A DNA stretch of 64,000 bases from Sparassis latifolia. Lineage: Eukaryota > Basidiomycota > Agaricomycetes > Polyporales > Sparassidaceae. Both the position numbers and the translations under genes were made by a program. The notes under the pieces are model-generated. The model had not been told where the DNA came from and ran no database searches. It saw only the letters and a program-made list of their open reading frames with translations. Each line of letters starts with the position of its first letter. The first letter of the stretch is position 1. Shown here piece after piece: positions 91-52,838 of the stretch. The DNA is taken from positions 1,426,001-1,490,000 of the forward strand of contig CM031563.1 in assembly GCA_018466975.1 (NCBI GenBank), in the 5' to 3' direction.

Positions 91-1200
91 TCACGGACGT
101 ATCGCCAATGTGCACCAAACTGCCATTCTGAGGGAGATCTGAGCAGGAAGACATCGCAATGACATAAAAGAAGCACATACTGTACGTGCATACCAGGCGA
201 GGAATCGACAGGCATGTGTGTGCACAACTCGTGGGTCTGCCGCCGACAGTGAACGGAGAGATGGATTGGTTACTGCACGGCCTGGCTCCTGCGCGAGAAA
301 TTCGTGTGCAAAGGTAAGGACACACTGGTCTGTCCTCGATGCGCAGTCGAGAGACTTGAGACTAATAGTGAGTGATCTACGAAGGTACAGCCAGAGTGAC
401 TCGTGGTCAGGATATGCCTCGACCAGCAATCTCGCGTGCGCAATGATTGCATGGTCATCCCGGAGCAGGGCGGGGCGTCCTGGGCACGCAGCAATGCTAG
501 GTGTCAAGTATAAGGCTGGAGTGCGGTTGGGGAGATGTGTGTGAATATTGCAGAGATACTGTACCGCCGTATAATCGGAGACATGGCGCTCGACCCACTG
601 CCGCATGGAGGTATACTCGTCGGCCAGCACCGCTGCATACTCACTATGCTGAGGGGACGACGAAGAGAGGAGCGCGACCAATGCGTCAAAGCAAATATAT
701 CGATGGGCCCAGGCATGGTAATTTCGTGGATAGACCTCGCATGCCTGCGAGATGGTTTTGAATTCATGCTGCAATGTTCCAGGAAGTATTGCGACATTTT
801 CCAAGGAACCATCACTCTGAAACGAAGGAGTAGAGACGTCTCCAGGATCTGCGCTTTCTTGGGTAAGACACAAACGCCGAAACAACCATCTGCGATGATG
901 CCACAAGATGGATTGCTTGGCACCCTCACGGACTGTCAGAAGCGCTGCAACGAATCGCATCTCGTGTGCAGGATCTATGACTTGACAGAGAACGAGCCTC
1001 TTTCGCACATTCAACGCAGTTTGATGGGCAGGGTTGGCCAGTAGAAGGACGGCTGAGGAGTGTACCAACGATTCTAAGACTTTCCGATCTCCGTCCAGGA
1101 TGCGTGCCTCCCGCCTGTACTTCGCGAATGACCTAACGGCGAACATGTACGCCTTGTGAAGAACCTTTTGTGGTACTCCAAGGTTGTCCTCTAAGAACAT
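91..1200 (-). CDS. Protein prenyltransferase alpha-subunit repeat protein (PTAR1-like)
   Basis: A single open frame of 369 residues from an ATG at 1200. It carries helical prenyltransferase-alpha (PPTA) repeats: ILWHHRRWLFRRL near residue 100, YPRNYHAWAHRYICFDAL near residue 157, and HESLWLYLRRSL near residue 270. The N-x-x-x-W-x-H-R core of the second is the family signature. The length and repeat spacing suit the PTAR1-like branch rather than a farnesyl- or geranylgeranyltransferase alpha subunit, so the inferred role is scaffolding of a Rab-prenylation-type complex in the cytosol. Near the C-terminus a 42-nt GT..AG segment (139-180) lies in frame and could be an intron; splicing or retention both keep the frame. 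The function is by family resemblance only. Confidence 0.75.
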   Translation of the reverse strand: MFLEDNLGVPQKVLHKAYMFAVRSFAKYRREARILDGDRKVLESLVHSSAVLLLANPAHQTALNVRKRLVLCQVIDPAHEMRFVAALLTVREGAKQSILWHHRRWLFRRLCLTQESADPGDVSTPSFQSDGSLENVAILPGTLQHEFKTISQACEVYPRNYHAWAHRYICFDALVALLSSSSPQHSEYAAVLADEYTSMRQWVERHVSDYTAVQYLCNIHTHLPNRTPALYLTPSIAACPGRPALLRDDHAIIAHARLLVEAYPDHESLWLYLRRSLTISLKSLDCASRTDQCVLTFAHEFLAQEPGRAVTNPSLRSLSAADPRVVHTHACRFLAWYARTVCASFMSLRCLPAQISLRMAVWCTLAIRP

Positions 1201-1663
1201 AAACGGTTTGTGCCTGCTTGTGGTATCGTCCGTTCCGTCGGTATCCTGAACGACCTCATATCCATCTCCGGGGAAAATCTCGACTGAGATTCTGCAACAA
1301 GTTCTGTCAAGTACTGCTGGTGGCTAAACGAATCAGGCTACGCACGGTGGTGTGTTCAGCAGTCGACCCAAGTGTTCCAAGATGTCGGGGATCGTCGATT
1401 CTTCCATGGGAAGTGAGGTACGAGGGAGGCTCAACAAGGGACGATCGACAATCAATAATCGAACATAATCTATTATGGGCCACTAGAGTTACTGTTGTAG
1501 GGAGAAAATCACGAGAGACAACTGATACATTTGATACACGGGTAATTGTGGTCAGAACGGGCGAACGCCAAGCAGTGAGTGTTCAAAATAGCATGGACAG
1601 GTCTAAGGATACACGAGAATGAATGCAATCACGATGCACGAGATGACCAAACGATGTCCGAGT
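1201..1663. other. Intergenic, between the PTAR1-like gene start and the next gene's 3' end
   Basis: This should contain the PTAR1-like promoter and the 3' end of the neighbouring minus-strand gene. A plus-strand open frame here has no recognisable domain, and I see no RNA gene or repeat. Confidence 0.5.
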
Positions 1664-2905
1664 CTAGTTCAGATTTTGGGACTTCGACCACTCCACGTCG
1701 TTCGCGTTAAAGTCCACCCCTTTTCGTTTCCACCACTCCCTTGCTGCCTCACCGCCTCCAATAGCATCCTCCAACGCCTCCTCGATGTCACACATCCGAT
1801 ACTGAATCGGCAATCCGCTCTTGTCCCACCACTCCAGGACTTCTGGCCGGTTATGCCTGGTTGCGCCAGTAAGTGCATCCGGGTCAAAGATCAACTGAAG
1901 CCCACTCCCGAGCCACCACTCTAAGACCTCCACCTTACCATGACAGCTCGCATGGTACAGCGCTTGTCGGTCGTACTTGAACTCCAGTTGCGAACGCGCC
2001 CACCACTCGAGAACGTCTACGTGCCCTGCCGTGCTCGCCATATCCATGACCCGGCCAATCTTGAGTTGCAGGCCGTGCACGACGCTCTGCTGTTTCCACC
2101 ACGCCAACACGGATAGTTGATCCTTGGCGCTGGCCATCTCGAGTGCTGCTTCGGTGTACTCCAGTGGGATTCCCGAGTGTAACCACCAGTCGAGCGAGGC
2201 TACCTGGCCATTGCGCGAGGCACCATCAATCGCGTCTGCGACGGAGCTCGGTTTGGGTAGAGGTAACGCGTCTGAATACTGCTCTCGCGCGTGTTTCCAC
2301 CAAAAAAGCACTGCCGTGCGCCCATGGTGGGAGGCCGTGATGGGAAGGAGATCGTCCTTGAATTTGGACAAGAATATCGGTCGATGCTGCGTGAGGAGAT
2401 ACTCCAGCACGTGCACATAGCCAAACCGGACGGCTAGTTTTGCACCAATGTTGGTGGGTGGGTACGAGGCAGGGTCTGCGGCGCGGATCAGGGGGAGATA
2501 ACCTGTGAGGATCGCGTGGTCGCAAGGACTGGCTCTGGTCCATGCTAATGGTTGAGGTAGAGACGTAGGCACACCAACTGCTTTAGCAAGCTCCCAGTCT
2601 CCTATGTGATCCATTATCTCCGCGAGAAGCTCCACCGGGAGTTCGGGGGCCATGGCCTGTCGGGGCCGTTGCTTCGACTGAACATCAATTGACGAAAGTA
2701 GAGGGGCGGTCCCAGCACCATTTACGGCGGACGGGAAGTGATATGTATGAATGTCATAGTGTGCCAGACGCGATGCCAATTCGACGTCCGTCCCCGTAGT
2801 TGACAAAGATCGAACTTTGAGGAATAAAACGAGTTGATCACGACTGAGACGTCGATATGCATCGTGAACTAGGTCTATAGAGGGATCATAATACTGATAT
2901 ATCAT
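1664..2905 (-). CDS. SAP-like and ankyrin-like 'VLEWW' repeat protein
   Basis: 413-residue frame. Residues about 15-50 look like a SAP DNA-binding motif (LSRDQLVLFLKVRSL then an L-x-x-R-L turn). Residues about 90-115 resemble an F-box helix (ELPVELLAEIMDHIGDWELA). The rest is a run of at least six ankyrin-like units of about 30-33 residues, each ending in a tryptophan pair: VLFWWKHA, SLDWWLHSG, VLAWWKQQ, VLEWWARSQ, VLEWWLGSG, VLEWWDKSG, and finally REWWKRKG. Such units occur in large lineage-specific fungal families and are inferred to be protein-binding. A strong donor (GTAAGTTTG) just upstream on the minus strand, near 2940, pairs with an acceptor (CTATAG) near 2878, so the true start may lie in an exon around 2945-3100. 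No specific function is assigned. Confidence 0.7.
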   Translation of the reverse strand: MIYQYYDPSIDLVHDAYRRLSRDQLVLFLKVRSLSTTGTDVELASRLAHYDIHTYHFPSAVNGAGTAPLLSSIDVQSKQRPRQAMAPELPVELLAEIMDHIGDWELAKAVGVPTSLPQPLAWTRASPCDHAILTGYLPLIRAADPASYPPTNIGAKLAVRFGYVHVLEYLLTQHRPIFLSKFKDDLLPITASHHGRTAVLFWWKHAREQYSDALPLPKPSSVADAIDGASRNGQVASLDWWLHSGIPLEYTEAALEMASAKDQLSVLAWWKQQSVVHGLQLKIGRVMDMASTAGHVDVLEWWARSQLEFKYDRQALYHASCHGKVEVLEWWLGSGLQLIFDPDALTGATRHNRPEVLEWWDKSGLPIQYRMCDIEEALEDAIGGGEAAREWWKRKGVDFNANDVEWSKSQNLN

Positions 2906-3595
2906 AAGTAGAAATGATAGGTGATAGGTGAATCAAACTTACCGGCATACCTCACAGACAGAAGGGAACACTTCGCAGAGAGCTTGAAGGCGTTAGCAGG
3001 TAATGATGGAGAATTTGTCGGTGTTTGGCAAGAGCTTTGGATTCTAATAAGGACAAACAACGCCGTGGCGCCATGTGTGCAGAGCCGAAAGCTCAGAAAC
3101 ACGCAGGTCCAATCTTGCCTTCAACAGCGAGCTGGCAAAGTTCGAGCCCACGCCGATATCAGACATGGTGGATTGTCACATTGTTCAATCAGTCCGGTTC
3201 GAAATAAGGTTTGAAGTCGACGCCGGCCAATGATCACCGCCGTTTTGTCGCAACATTCAATTAGAATGGCGTACATGGTTTATTAAACAACGTATGCATT
3301 TTCAACATGACGAAAGGATACAAGCGCGGAGAGACATACGCCGTGATACGGTTCGAAGTCAGATGTAGGGCATACACTTGGGGGTGCGTCATCTTTTGGA
3401 TCAAGAGCAACGCGCGATAGGATGGGGTGATCTATATGCAGGCAATCGAAGAATTTTCAACATTGTATGGATGAACCTGACGTACCAAACACGAGCAAGC
3501 CTCACACAAGGGCTATGAGACTTGGAGAATGTTGCCCAAGTCAGTTGACGCAATGAATACAGAGGCTTCACAGTCACGGAAAAATATCGTTTAAT
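2906..3595. other. Intergenic, possibly with a 5' exon of the repeat protein
   Basis: On the minus strand about 2945-3102 there is an open stretch ending at the good donor described for the neighbouring gene; it may be a 5' exon or leader. No domain is recognisable. The remainder up to the REX2 stop shows no gene, RNA or repeat. Confidence 0.35.
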
Positions 3596-48533: not shown

Positions 48534-49378
48534 GGCATCTTATAGCTGTATTGCATAGTCTGGTTTCCCGGAGATGCCAAAGATGCCTTCGCACCTCCTT
48601 TCACCGCCACAGATGGATCTGACACTGGCTTGAGAATTGACGTGGGGACCTGGGAGGCCGGTATACCCGGAGGATGCTTCGCTGACTTCCCTGCGGCGTT
48701 GTCATTGAACTGAACAGTCTTTTTCTTCAGAGCCACACCGGCTTCTAGTACTTGGAGTTAAGTGCCTCCTTCGTGATCTCCCACAGGCTGACCATATGCG
48801 GAGGCTGGTCACGCCCATCCCTCGAAACATTGGGTGGAGGCGCTGCAGACGGCCCCAGACCATCACTGAAAAGGTTCCCAGGATACATATCATGCCACGC
48901 ATCAACACGCTCCGCCATGCTACGTCTAGGAAGGTCATGAGGAATGAACCATCCATTTGGGAGGATAATCCTACTGAGTGCATCACAATTAATCTTTCAT
49001 GCCCTGATGTAGTCCTCGATGCATGGACAGTTTTGCATGAAATGATCGATGGCTAGACAGAAGTTACAGGCACGGAGTGCTTGTGGAAGAGGATTTTGCA
49101 CGACCGCTGCCTGAATGTTGGCCTGCATTACCGGTGCCTGTCCCCCCCCCCCCCAGATGTTCACATGGCTTGCTGCAACACATTTGCTAGAACATCTTTG
49201 TCAGTTATGAAAGATAATCTTTTCTATCAATAAGTAGCAAATTTTCATAAGAATTGCTACTTTTAAGTAGACTTATCTGTAGGTGCATAGATTAACTCAG
49301 GATAATCGTAATATAATCTTTCAGATAATCTGAGGATAATCTTCTGAATAATCTGAGAATAATCTGAAGATTAGCAAT

Positions 49379-49479
49379 AAAATACAATTTTAACTTTGAC
49401 ACCAGCCAGGATTGAACCCTGGACCTTAGGTTGATTTTATAGAATATAATTTCAAGTAACACTTTAGACCACTTGACCA
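49379..49479 (-). promoter_or_regulatory. tRNA-like Pol III promoter, left arm
   Basis: Minus-strand A box TGGTCAAGTGG (49479-49469) and B box GTTCAATCC (49417-49409), followed outward by a TTTT run (49382-49379). Mirror copy of the right-arm unit. Confidence 0.65.
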
Positions 49480-50098
49480 TTAGGCCATACATCACAACTA
49501 TCTTATATTAAATTAGACGTCTTTTTCTTGAAAAAGACTTAGCCAAATTCTGTCTATTAGAAAAGAGTAAGTAAAAGACACTTGACTTTTATCATAGATA
49601 GACAAGCCTTATAGACAAACAGTACTCTGCATCTTATTATAGTCTTGTTCTACAGCTTACAGTTTTTGTAAACTATCATGCAGTACTATAGAGTATCTTA
49701 ATATAGTCATCTATAATATATAACAAGTTATTGAGAGACAATATTTTATTTGTTCATTTTAGGCTTATACTCTAGAGTCTATTATATTATAGACTGAGCA
49801 CTTATATATACAAGATCTTTATAGCTATCTTCTAATTGTATAGCAAAGTTCTGTTTTGCTGAAGTAACTGTAGAAACATATATTCTATTAATTACATATT
49901 GTACTACATTATATGAAGGCTGCAAGCATTAGAAAAGACTATAAGACTCAGAGTAATGTTTGTTTATAAGTCTTGTCTATCTATGATAAAAGTCAAGTGT
50001 CTTTTACTTACTCTTTTCTAATAGACAGAATTTGGCTAAGTCTTTTTCAATAAAAAGATGTCTAATTTAATATAAGATAGTTGTGATGTATGGCCTAA

Positions 50099-50199
50099 TG
50101 GTCAAGTGGTCTAAAGTGTTACTTGGAATTATATTCTATAAAATCAACCTAAGGTCCAGGGTTCAATCCTGGCTGGTGTCAAAGTTAAAATTGTATTTT
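50099..50199 (+). promoter_or_regulatory. tRNA-like Pol III promoter, right arm
   Basis: A box TGGTCAAGTGG (50099-50109) and the downstream CTAAAGTG resemble the D-arm of a tRNA-Leu/Ser type gene. B box GTTCAATCC (50161-50169) sits in a perfect 5-bp T-stem (CCAGG/CCTGG). A TTTT terminator-like run follows at 50196-50199. I cannot pair an acceptor stem, so it is tRNA-derived rather than a working tRNA gene. Transcription would run outward. Confidence 0.65.
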
Positions 50200-52838
50200 A
50201 TTGCTAATCTTCAGATTATTCTCAGATTATCCAGAAGATTATCCTCAGATTATCTGGAAGATTATATTAAGATTATCCTAAATTAATCTATGCACCTACA
50301 GATAAGTCTACTTAAAAGTAGCAATTCTCATGAAAATTTGCTACTTATTGATAGAAAAGATTATCTTTCATAACTGACATCACTGGCTAGAAACCGCATT
50401 GCGTCCATCTCGTTCCCTTCCAACTTCACCGTCCCTGCACTTGGCTTCGATACTGCCACTGCACTCAATGCACTCCCGCTCCCACTAAGGATGTGCTGCA
50501 CTGCAGAATGGACTTCCGATATTGCATACAGATCATCCGGATTCTGATCGGGAACCTTAATCGCCAGTCAATTTTTGATAGCATGTAAGGGGGACACTTC
50601 GAACCCTTCAAGGTACAGCCGGTCCCACTCATAGGCCGATAGTTGACCCCTAGACAACAAGAACAATGTGACACGAGTAAAATCCCGATAGTACTGTCCC
50701 TCCTCCGCGCGGCTGGATACTCCTCTCATCCGTGCTGCCCGTACAATCTGGGTCAAGTCAGACTGTGTGTATTGACGGTCATCCTCTGCTCCTGGGTACA
50801 GCGTGATGACTGCAGTCTTGAACTGCTCATACATCTCTCACTCCGTGACACCCATCCAAAGATCCGCCTCATCCAACGACACGTACTTGCAAGCCGCTCA
50901 GATTTTTGCATCATCGTCCAGCTGTACTCGCATCGCCAAATCTTCAAGATCAGTGAAATACCACATCAAGGCTCATGAAGATCCATCAAAGGTCGGCGCC
51001 ATCGAGTGACCATGTGCTGGCATCGAGACTGGTCTGGGGGCTGGTTCCTGGTCCGCCATGGCTGCGGCTTCTAGGCATTGTGGTGATAGAGCTGAGGACG
51101 GGGGATGAGATGGAATGAGTGAGACATCCTCCGGAAGTGGTGACAGGGGCGATGATTTGCAAGATCTCAAGAGCGAGGAAATCGGAAGGCGGGTGTCAAC
51201 AAATGGGTTCTCCGGATCATCGAAGTCGATAGGTGGTCGGTATGCGAAATTGTCAGGAAGTGGACCCATGAACACTGGGGAACCTGGAGTCGGCAGCTGG
51301 GAAGCTGCCAAGGTAAGCTCCTCTTGGAGCGATCTGGAAGCAAGGTGACTGCTCCACCATATCGCATGAAGACCCCTCATGGTGGGCTCCAGTTGACAAG
51401 ATTGTATTTTCATCACAAGTCAGAAAGGTGGAGTACAAGCGGAATCAAGTCCGCGTGGGGTCTGAGATGCAATGGAGGAGAAAAGTCTATTCCAGAAGTA
51501 TGAGATGGGTAGCCTGATAGCGTAGCTAGAAAATCTCTGTAGTCGCTATAGTCGCTGGAAAATGTGTCACAGGTAAAATTGCACTGTTCTAAGGAGAACG
51601 CTAAAATGCAGAAACACAAGACTGCCCAGAAATGCACAAATGCAAGACTGCCCAAAAATGCACAAACTGAATGGAATGGGAATGTGAATGAGGCTTTTTG
51701 CAAGGGTACCTTCCGGGACGGTGGGTTCTACCTGGCCTCTTCCCCTGCCATCATACTTAAACTGGTCCTGACCTTTTCCTGCCCTCCCGATACTGCCCGC
51801 ATCTGCTTAACAATAATTCTGCTGCATCACTGCCCATCACGCCATATCTCACAATCCCGTCCACTCACGCTCCTACTCAATCCGAGGGATCCTCCATCAT
51901 CGGGCCCGCCCAAGCACCTAATAAGCACCCACCTGCCTCGGAGGCATATCTCCCATCCTGAACTCAATCTCCCATTCATGGATGCCAGCATCATCCTTCG
52001 CAAATACACCCTCACGGAAGCTCTTCTTCACATTGAGATCTTTACCGAGCCCTTCGATCCGATCCTGTGGAAAGCATGGGCAGTCCGGATGCACGTCCTG
52101 CTGGTGAGGCTCCCACAAGCATATGATCCTTCACCGTCTGACCCTCACACGTCCCTCAGGTCTTTATGGTCCAAGCCCAGTCTGAAGCAGCCAGCGTGGG
52201 GATCATCCTACCCCTTCTGCATGATATTCCTGTCCTCGCCCAAGTGGAAATACACCTTGCAACGGCTCGCACTATGGAAGGCAGTCGTCGGATGATCCCT
52301 CGGATTGCCGACCACCTTCCTGCAGTCATTCCTCATGGTTTGACTGCCCGCATTCTGTACGATGACCCCACTGTCCGCGAGGACTTTGGTTTGGGCCACC
52401 CACCAGATGGTCTCCCTGACATTGGTGCACCGTCGTCCTATCCATATTTTCCTAGAATCGTGTTCCTTAGCTTTTATTGCCATCAGGAACCTTGCACCTT
52501 CAGGTTGAGACATTGCACGATGCAGCCTGCGGACTGTACTATGTCATGCTCAGAATCATCGGTAGATGCGAGTTGGCAGATGGTACTTTGAGAGGGTTGC
52601 AGATAGGGATGGACACGGGTCACACCAGTGACACCGCACCCACCACCCGCAACACTGACCCTTGTGCGGGTAAGGGTTTAGACCCACGGGCATACACCGG
52701 CGGGTTGTCCAAGTCACCGTGGGTTTCATTACCGCGGGCTGCACCACGGGTCCAACACTAGAAAATTGTTATATACAGGGAATTCAAATATATGTCATGG
52801 CATAATGCAAGATGGAGACATCAGCGGGTCACTTGTGA

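What the first reader, a model, noticed from the sequence alone, without database searches (positions are those of the whole stretch)
49197..50376. 1.2-kb near-palindromic element with a tRNA-like Pol III unit in each arm
Two inverted arms of about 470 bp each contain an A box, a B box in a perfect T-stem, and a TTTT run, oriented to transcribe outward. It sits between a 5-bp duplication (ACATC), and excising it restores a gag reading frame. It matches neither a normal SINE (single unit, tailed) nor an ordinary MITE. It may be a new class of foldback element built from two head-to-head tRNA-derived units.
Basis: partly seen in the sequence, partly recalled or inferred. Interest (0 to 1): 0.85.

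Follow-up and report, generated by a model that had tools for sequence, protein, structure and literature searches.

The report
Palindromic fungal transposon with tRNA-like promoters
A palindromic jumping-DNA element in a mushroom-type fungus carries a tRNA-gene-like promoter in each arm, and its tips match a large transposon of the same genome that probably moves it.

Summary
The element is 49193-50385 (1193 bp): two arms of about 460 bp and a 257-bp loop. It is flanked by a 7-bp duplication, GCTAGAA, not the 5-bp ACATC; four natural empty sites agree. It is not a one-off: about 40 copies of this family were found, nearly all paired, and families B, C and a fourth (E) share the plan. Of 48 loci with both tips, 35 have perfect 7-bp duplications, against 0 of 2256 control pairings. 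Tips, duplication length and subterminal GATWATC repeats match a 13.4-kb element of the same genome that encodes a KDZ transposase. So it is most likely a non-autonomous, MITE-like foldback transposon of the KDZ superfamily, nearest to Kyakuja. Each arm carries host-tRNA-like A and B boxes pointing outward: 18-, 16- and 14-nt exact matches to host tRNA genes in families A, C and B, boxes 60-61 nt apart. There is no tRNA fold, and the KDZ ends examined lack the unit. Pol III transcription is inferred, not shown. New variant of a known kind.

The parts
49186..49192 (.). Left 7-bp target-site duplication GCTAGAA
   Evidence: single copy at four empty paralogous sites L077-L080 (L080 with a base change)
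49193..50385 (.). Whole foldback element, 1193 bp (family A)
   Evidence: Ends defined from 40 loci and tip-pair scan
49193..49198 (+). Non-palindromic tip CATCTT
   Evidence: differs from CAGTGA at the other end
49199..49662 (+). Left arm (464-column alignment, 95.5% complementary to the right arm)
49379..49382 (-). T4 run downstream of the left-arm B box (reads TTTT on the minus strand)
   Evidence: Sequence; T4 is the longest run within 40 nt for 13 of 35 host tRNAs
49396..49554 (-). Conserved core of left arm: upstream motif, A box, B box (outward)
   Evidence: nhmmer, (the window arms were among the sequences the profile was built from)
49408..49418 (-). B box GGTTCAATCCT, left arm
49477..49487 (-). 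A box TGGCCTAATGG, left arm (a second, overlapping A box TGGTCAAGTGG starts 8 nt further on)
49663..49919 (.). Loop between the arms
49920..50379 (+). Right arm
50024..50042 (+). Upstream motif GACAGAATTTGGCTAAGTC, shared by families A, B, C; role unknown
50091..50101 (+). A box TGGCCTAATGG, right arm
   Evidence: inside a 16-nt stretch identical at 15 positions to host tRNA L115 in register
50099..50109 (+). Overlapping A box TGGTCAAGTGG, the one that aligns with the A box of families B and C
50160..50170 (+). B box GGTTCAATCCT, right arm
   Evidence: its first 10 bases end an 18-nt exact match to host tRNA-Arg L110
50196..50199 (+). T4 run downstream of the right-arm B box
   Evidence: a T4 lies in the same alignment columns in families A, B and C
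50380..50385 (-). Non-palindromic tip CAGTGA (reads TCACTG on the plus strand)
50386..50392 (.). Right 7-bp target-site duplication GCTAGAA

Best explanation
It is a non-autonomous, palindromic (foldback) DNA transposon moved by a KDZ transposase encoded elsewhere in the same genome; among described KDZ groups Kyakuja is the nearest. The transposase would recognise two different tips (CATCWT-TGTCAGTTATRA and CAGTGA-TGTCAGTTATRA) plus subterminal GATWATC repeats, cut out the element and insert it with a 7-bp staggered cut. Each arm carries a promoter module resembling host tRNA genes (A box, B box 60-61 nt on, T4 run), placed so that TFIIIC and Pol III would act outward from both arms. Likely benefit: arms bound by TFIIIC stay accessible, or outward Pol III transcripts are made, so that a palindrome the cell would tend to silence or delete stays mobile. 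Shown: structure, copy number, ends, duplications, empty sites, tips shared with a KDZ-coding element, host-tRNA-matching boxes in several families. Inferred: mobilisation by KDZ, Pol III activity and its benefit.
For: KDZ link: 35 of 48 tip-paired loci have a perfect 7-bp duplication and 7 more have one mismatch; control 0 of 2256. A 13,386-bp element (C11:2834640-2848025) has the same tips, a perfect 7-bp duplication ACGACGC, and ORFs matching KDZ PF18758 (2.2e-29) and CxC2 PF18803 (2e-27). Family A matches its ends over the outer 30 bp (90%), family B over 97 bp (90%). GATWATC occurs 12 and 15 times in the two KDZ ends and 3-5 times in each of 6 foldback arms tested, against means of 0.05-0.26 in shuffles, and 0 times in 2 kb of KDZ interior. 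7-bp duplications and CA..TG ends are reported for Kyakuja-1_LB and -2_LB (PMC12730594). Promoter module: longest exact matches to 35 host tRNA genes are 18 nt (A), 16 nt (C), 14 nt (B); maxima in 200 shuffles 12-13; three other parts of the arm 7-10. They lie in A-box or B-box register. The B box keeps 10 of 11 columns across A, B, C versus 123 of 304 elsewhere, P=0.001. A-to-B spacing is 60-61 nt in families A, B, C and E.
Against: No expression or mobility data. Family A shares only 30 bp with the KDZ tips. The host KDZ element has 103-bp inverted ends, 95% identical, whereas the published Kyakuja-1_LB and -2_LB have none, so the Kyakuja subgroup is less sure than KDZ. Family C is tied in by tips and core only: the one C locus with a tip pair (L071) has 3 mismatches in its duplication. 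The A box first picked in family A is not conserved across families (5 of 11, P=0.49); the overlapping second one is what aligns. Family B and E promoters score weakly (shuffles scoring as high: B_L053 25 of 200, B_L056 3 of 200, E 2 of 200). No tRNA fold: z-scores -0.79, 0.31, 0.86, no T-stem covariation. The KDZ ends examined lack the module, so KDZ transposition as such does not need it.
Confidence: 0.8

Rival explanations
1. Same KDZ foldback, but the tRNA-like units are passive relics: a tRNA fragment or SINE head landed in an ancestral foldback element, was duplicated when the palindrome formed, and now does nothing. (This rivals the promoter part only, so its odds do not add up with the rest.)
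For: No tRNA fold; B boxes of families B and E are weak; a foldback type without the unit also has copies (L074, L075); A-box columns as first defined are not conserved.
Against: B box 10 of 11 conserved across families that agree at 123 of 304 other columns; spacing constant at 60-61 nt; different families match different host tRNA genes in register.
Confidence: 0.45
2. A P-superfamily element like Galileo of Drosophila, with long foldback arms and 7-bp duplications.
For: Galileo has long terminal inverted repeats, 7-bp flanking sequences and copies made of two arms (passages of PMC3573991).
Against: A KDZ-coding element with the same tips is in the genome. The P transposase model found nothing, but its control rang nowhere either, so that search is uninformative.
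Confidence: 0.04
3. Two SINEs inserted head to head, moved by LINE machinery.
For: tRNA-type A and B boxes in each half.
Against: 7-bp duplications in 35 of 48 loci, fixed tips on both ends, no tail seen, pairs at near-constant distance (35 of 38 pairs 758-767 bp apart).
Confidence: 0.01
4. A chance rearrangement or assembly artefact producing one palindrome.
For: None found.
Against: About 40 copies, most at different sites with different duplications, and natural empty sites.
Confidence: 0.01

Closest known systems
Kyakuja transposons of the KDZ superfamily (Kyakuja-1_LB, Kyakuja-2_LB)
   Same: 7-bp target duplication and 5'-CA..TG-3' ends (PMC12730594); the host genome has a KDZ element with the same tips
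   Different: The published ones encode proteins and have no terminal inverted repeats; the host KDZ element has 103-bp inverted ends, and this one is non-coding and almost wholly palindromic with promoter modules in its arms
Galileo (P superfamily, Drosophila)
   Same: Long foldback arms, two-arm copies, 7-bp flanking sequences, some copies with mismatched flanks (passages)
   Different: Different transposase and, as far as I know, no tRNA-like promoter in its arms (recalled, not tested)
MITEs
   Same: Non-coding, inverted repeats, fixed duplication, a likely parent element in the same genome
   Different: 1.2-1.5 kb in families A and B, almost all arm; carries tRNA-like promoter boxes in each arm (typical MITE size recalled)
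tRNA-derived SINEs
   Same: A and B boxes close to host tRNA genes
   Different: Two units pointing outward, fixed ends, fixed 7-bp duplication, no tail seen

Membership tests
Kyakuja / KDZ (as non-autonomous derivative) | 7-bp target-site duplication | tested here: met
   35 of 48 perfect, 7 with one mismatch; control 0 of 2256; empty sites. By family: A 29 of 38 perfect, B 6 of 9, C 0 of 1
Kyakuja / KDZ (as non-autonomous derivative) | 5'-CA..TG-3' termini | tested here: met
   46 of 48 tip-paired loci have CA at both ends, L041 and L046 have one mutated end; the scan pattern itself asked for CA with at most 2 mismatches, but the ends were first seen without it
Kyakuja / KDZ (as non-autonomous derivative) | Ends shared with a KDZ-coding element | tested here: met
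   Outer 30 bp at 90% (family A), 97 bp at 90% (family B) with the 13.4-kb KDZ element
Kyakuja | No terminal inverted repeats, as stated for Kyakuja-1_LB and -2_LB | tested here: not met
   The host KDZ element has 103-bp inverted ends at 95%; whether other Kyakuja have them was not checked
Kyakuja / KDZ (as autonomous element) | Encodes a KDZ transposase | tested here: not met
   None of the KDZ matches listed (capped listing of 164) falls in the 1193-bp element
Kyakuja | Position in the Kyakuja clade of the transposase tree | not tested
   No tree built; Kyakuja rather than Zisupton/Dileera rests on 7 versus 8 bp duplications as given in PMC12730594
MITE | Non-coding element with terminal inverted repeats and fixed duplication, derived from a DNA transposon | tested here: met
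   longer than a typical MITE
SINE | Single tRNA-headed unit, tail, variable duplication | tested here: not met
   Paired units, fixed 7-bp duplication
tRNA gene | Cloverleaf recognised by tRNA models | tested here: not met
   RF00005 rings on 44 host places, none of them in these elements (63 of 1131 candidates scored)
Pol III type 2 promoter | A box, B box at tRNA-like spacing, T run | tested here: met
   Families A and C score inside the host tRNA range; B and E weak
Pol III type 2 promoter | Transcription by Pol III | not testable with these tools
   No RNA or ChIP data
P superfamily (Galileo-like) | P transposase | tested here: inconclusive
   PF12017 found nothing and its control genomes did not ring

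The most novel reading that the evidence does not exclude
A lineage of KDZ-moved foldback transposons in a polypore-like fungus uses paired, outward Pol III promoters as a working part of its life cycle: TFIIIC/Pol III at both arms keeps the palindrome open, insulated or replicating in a way that helps transposition. The module was kept while the rest of the arms diverged, and it may have been renewed from different host tRNA genes in different families.
Probability: 0.35. Interest if true: 0.75.

Novelty: new variant of a known kind. Interest (0 to 1): 0.55.

Why it matters
DNA transposons are not known to me for carrying tRNA-type promoters in their terminal arms (recalled; the listings of the searches showed no title or abstract start describing one). 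If the promoters work, this is a cut-and-paste element borrowing Pol III, which I know chiefly as a mark of SINEs. It would make testable how palindromic elements escape silencing and deletion. It also offers the KDZ superfamily short, defined substrates with two different tips.

Tried and rejected
P-element family search gave nothing, and its controls did not ring either. The 4749-bp relative L050 looked autonomous because of a DDE_3 transposase. Reading the sequence suggests that this gene belongs to a separate, apparently TA-flanked element nested in the left arm, so I dropped it as the partner. Rfam gave only hits to unrelated families below their gathering scores. RNA folding and T-stem covariation gave no support for a tRNA fold. 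Literature searches: 9. I read passages of PMC12730594 (plus its section 19), PMC3573991 and PMC5014426, and saw only the listings of the others. Whether foldbacks prefer KDZ neighbourhoods was looked at only against uniform random positions, which does not allow for transposon clusters.

Full report
WHAT IS THERE. The window lies on contig C12 of a 41.4-Mb, 22-contig genome. A protein piece of a KDZ element in this genome is closest to proteins of Sparassis latifolia (84% identity), so the host is probably a Sparassis-like polypore; that is inference. At 49193-50385 there is a 1193-bp near-palindrome: arms of about 460 bp at 95-97% complementarity and a 257-bp loop. The outermost 6 bp are unlike at the two ends (CATCTT and CAGTGA) and lie outside the palindrome. 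The element sits in a Ty3/gypsy-like retrotransposon on the minus strand (integrase, RNase H and protease domains in 4 of 8 ORFs given).

DUPLICATION AND EMPTY SITES. The flanking duplication is GCTAGAA, 7 bp. A search with the left flank found 10 other copies of the retrotransposon region. I fetched 4 of the 10; all 4 run through the site with a single copy of that heptamer, one with a base change. Of 53 loci examined, 48 had a recognisable tip pair: 35 with perfect 7-bp duplications, 7 with one mismatch, 2 with two, 1 with three, 1 with four and 2 with six. Pairing the left flank of one locus with the right flank of another gave 0 perfect matches in 2256. By family, perfect duplications are 29 of 38 (A), 6 of 9 (B) and 0 of 1 (C). 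Caveats: where several tip pairs were possible the script kept the best one, which the control did not do; L029 and L031 are two copies of one insertion (3.2 kb at 99%); L013 and L014 share their left flank. Copies without a duplication (for example L010, L016) recall the chimeric copies with mismatched flanks reported for Galileo (passages of PMC3573991).

SINGLE OR PAIRED. A 25-base pattern from the family-A B-box region, with up to 3 mismatches, matched 85 places, 0 in the reversed control. 38 inverted pairs account for 76 of them, 35 of the pairs at 758-767 bp. Of the 9 left over, 5 have a diverged partner found by a profile (L046, L069-L072), 1 has a truncated partner (L025), 2 are lone arms in the stretch fetched (L081, L082) and 1 was not examined. 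A profile of the core found it on both strands in 52 of 66 fetched loci, on one strand in 5 (L025, L045, L058, L061 and L076, the last a short slice) and not at all in 9; some of these loci supplied the sequences of the profile. So the unit is mostly paired, with a few lone arms.

MORE FAMILIES. Relatives with other arms but the same plan exist. Family B is about 1.5 kb when uninterrupted, with arms up to 661 bp at 99.5% (L056). Family C is about 1 kb (L069-L072), and L073 represents a further one, here called E. The 9 loci without the core are the KDZ element ends (L067, L068), other tip-bearing loci (L059, L062-L065) and a different foldback type (L074, L075, 98% alike; related at 70-72% to stretches inside L049 and L055).

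WHO MOVES IT. The tip pattern with one mismatch matches 182 places in the genome, 18 in the reversed control. One pair brackets a 13,386-bp element, C11:2834640-2848025, with a perfect 7-bp duplication ACGACGC. Its ORFs match the KDZ transposase (PF18758, 2.2e-29) and the KDZ-linked CxC2 cluster (PF18803, 2e-27). Family B shares its outer 97 bp, family A its outer 30 bp. Both of its ends are packed with GATWATC (12 in 400 bp, 15 in 640 bp; shuffle means 0.16 and 0.26); 6 foldback arms carry 3-5 each (shuffle means 0.05-0.15); 2 kb of KDZ interior has none. The genome gave 164 KDZ domain matches, a lower bound. Published Kyakuja-1_LB and -2_LB make 7-bp duplications and end in CA..TG, whereas Zisupton and a Dileera-lineage family make 8 bp (passages and section 19 of PMC12730594). 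Against a plain Kyakuja label: those two have no inverted repeats, while the host element has 103-bp inverted ends at 95%. I therefore file it as a non-autonomous KDZ element, nearest to Kyakuja. Mobilisation in trans is inferred.

TWO UNLIKE TIPS AND A FLIPPING LOOP. Of 48 loci, 45 have exactly one CATCTT/CATCAT tip and one CAGTGA tip, 2 more have one mutated tip, and 1 (L052, without a duplication) has the same tip twice. In 35 family-A copies the loop lies in one orientation to the left tip in 25 and in the other in 10; one of the 10 (L043) is rearranged and showed CAGTGA at both nearest ends. Bases near the loop follow the loop side and bases at the tip follow the tip, as expected if recombination between arms inverts the middle.

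THE tRNA-LIKE UNITS. Neither ARAGORN nor Rfam recognises a tRNA, though RF00005 finds 44 matches in this genome. Predicted RNA folds are no better than shuffles (z -0.79, 0.31, 0.86), and the T-stem shows no covariation. So it is not a tRNA. As a promoter it is convincing in families A and C. Against 35 of the 44 host matches, the A unit has an 18-nt exact match, C 16 nt and B 14 nt; dinucleotide shuffles reach at most 12-13 and three other parts of the arm 7-10. The best matches lie in A-box or B-box register of genes that ARAGORN calls tRNA-Arg, tRNA-Glu and tRNA-Ile; one further match, L115, is an Rfam hit that ARAGORN did not call. A matrix trained on host boxes gives A 23.6 and C 24.4, inside the host range 15.2-33.8 and above all 200 shuffles; B_L056 15.1 (3 of 200), B_L053 9.3 (25 of 200) and E 14.5 (2 of 200) are weak. 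A-to-B spacing is 60-61 nt in all four families; host tRNAs span 43-88 as computed from gene lengths. A T4 run follows the B box, and for 13 of 35 host tRNAs T4 is the longest run in the 40 nt downstream. Across families A, B and C the B box keeps 10 of 11 columns against 123 of 304 elsewhere (P=0.001), and the tip 17 of 24 (P=0.004). The upstream motif keeps 16 of 19 but was chosen after seeing it. The A box chosen first in family A keeps only 5 of 11 (P=0.49), and both boxes together 15 of 22 (P=0.01); the overlapping A box is what aligns with B and C.

MECHANISM AND VERDICT. Best supported: a KDZ-moved foldback transposon, structure and ends shown, mobilisation inferred, with outward Pol III-type promoters in both arms whose activity and benefit are unproven. 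I put about 0.55 on the boxes being functional in some families and 0.45 on their being relics. The new part is the tRNA-like promoter in each arm. I saw no precedent in the listings of 5 searches of an open-access library, which is not proof that none exists.

Noticed in passing
L050, about 642-3045 (G000 C5): A DDE_3 (PF13358) transposon, apparently with a TA duplication, seems nested in the left arm of a family-B foldback; it made the foldback look autonomous.
   Followed up: partly
G000 C11:2834640-2848025 (L067, L068): A 13.4-kb KDZ element with perfect 7-bp duplication, 103-bp inverted ends and GATWATC-rich ends; a 97% identical stretch of its left end lies at C8:1635914-1636554.
   Followed up: partly
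Window 50024-50042 (+) and its mirror in the left arm; arms of families B and C: A 19-bp motif GACAGAATTTGNCTAAGTC, about 50 bp upstream of the A box, is as conserved as the B box; role unknown. Not found with up to 2 mismatches in L059, L062-L065, L067, L068, L074, L075.
   Followed up: partly
40 family-A copies genome-wide: 15 of 40 lie within 8 kb of a KDZ match, against 2.0 expected for uniform positions (KDZ starts typed from part); may reflect transposon clusters. L033 lies between a KDZ match and a KDZ-end-like stretch on C14.
   Followed up: partly
L029 (C11) and L031 (C10): The two 3.2-kb loci are 99% identical in opposite orientation: a segmental duplication that includes the foldback.
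   Followed up: partly
L074, L075; also inside L049 and L055: Another long-armed foldback type without the tRNA-like core; 70-72% related stretches lie inside two family-B loci.
   Followed up: partly
L043 (C4): A foldback with an extra terminal fragment and inverted flank sequence, apparently a local rearrangement.
   Followed up: no
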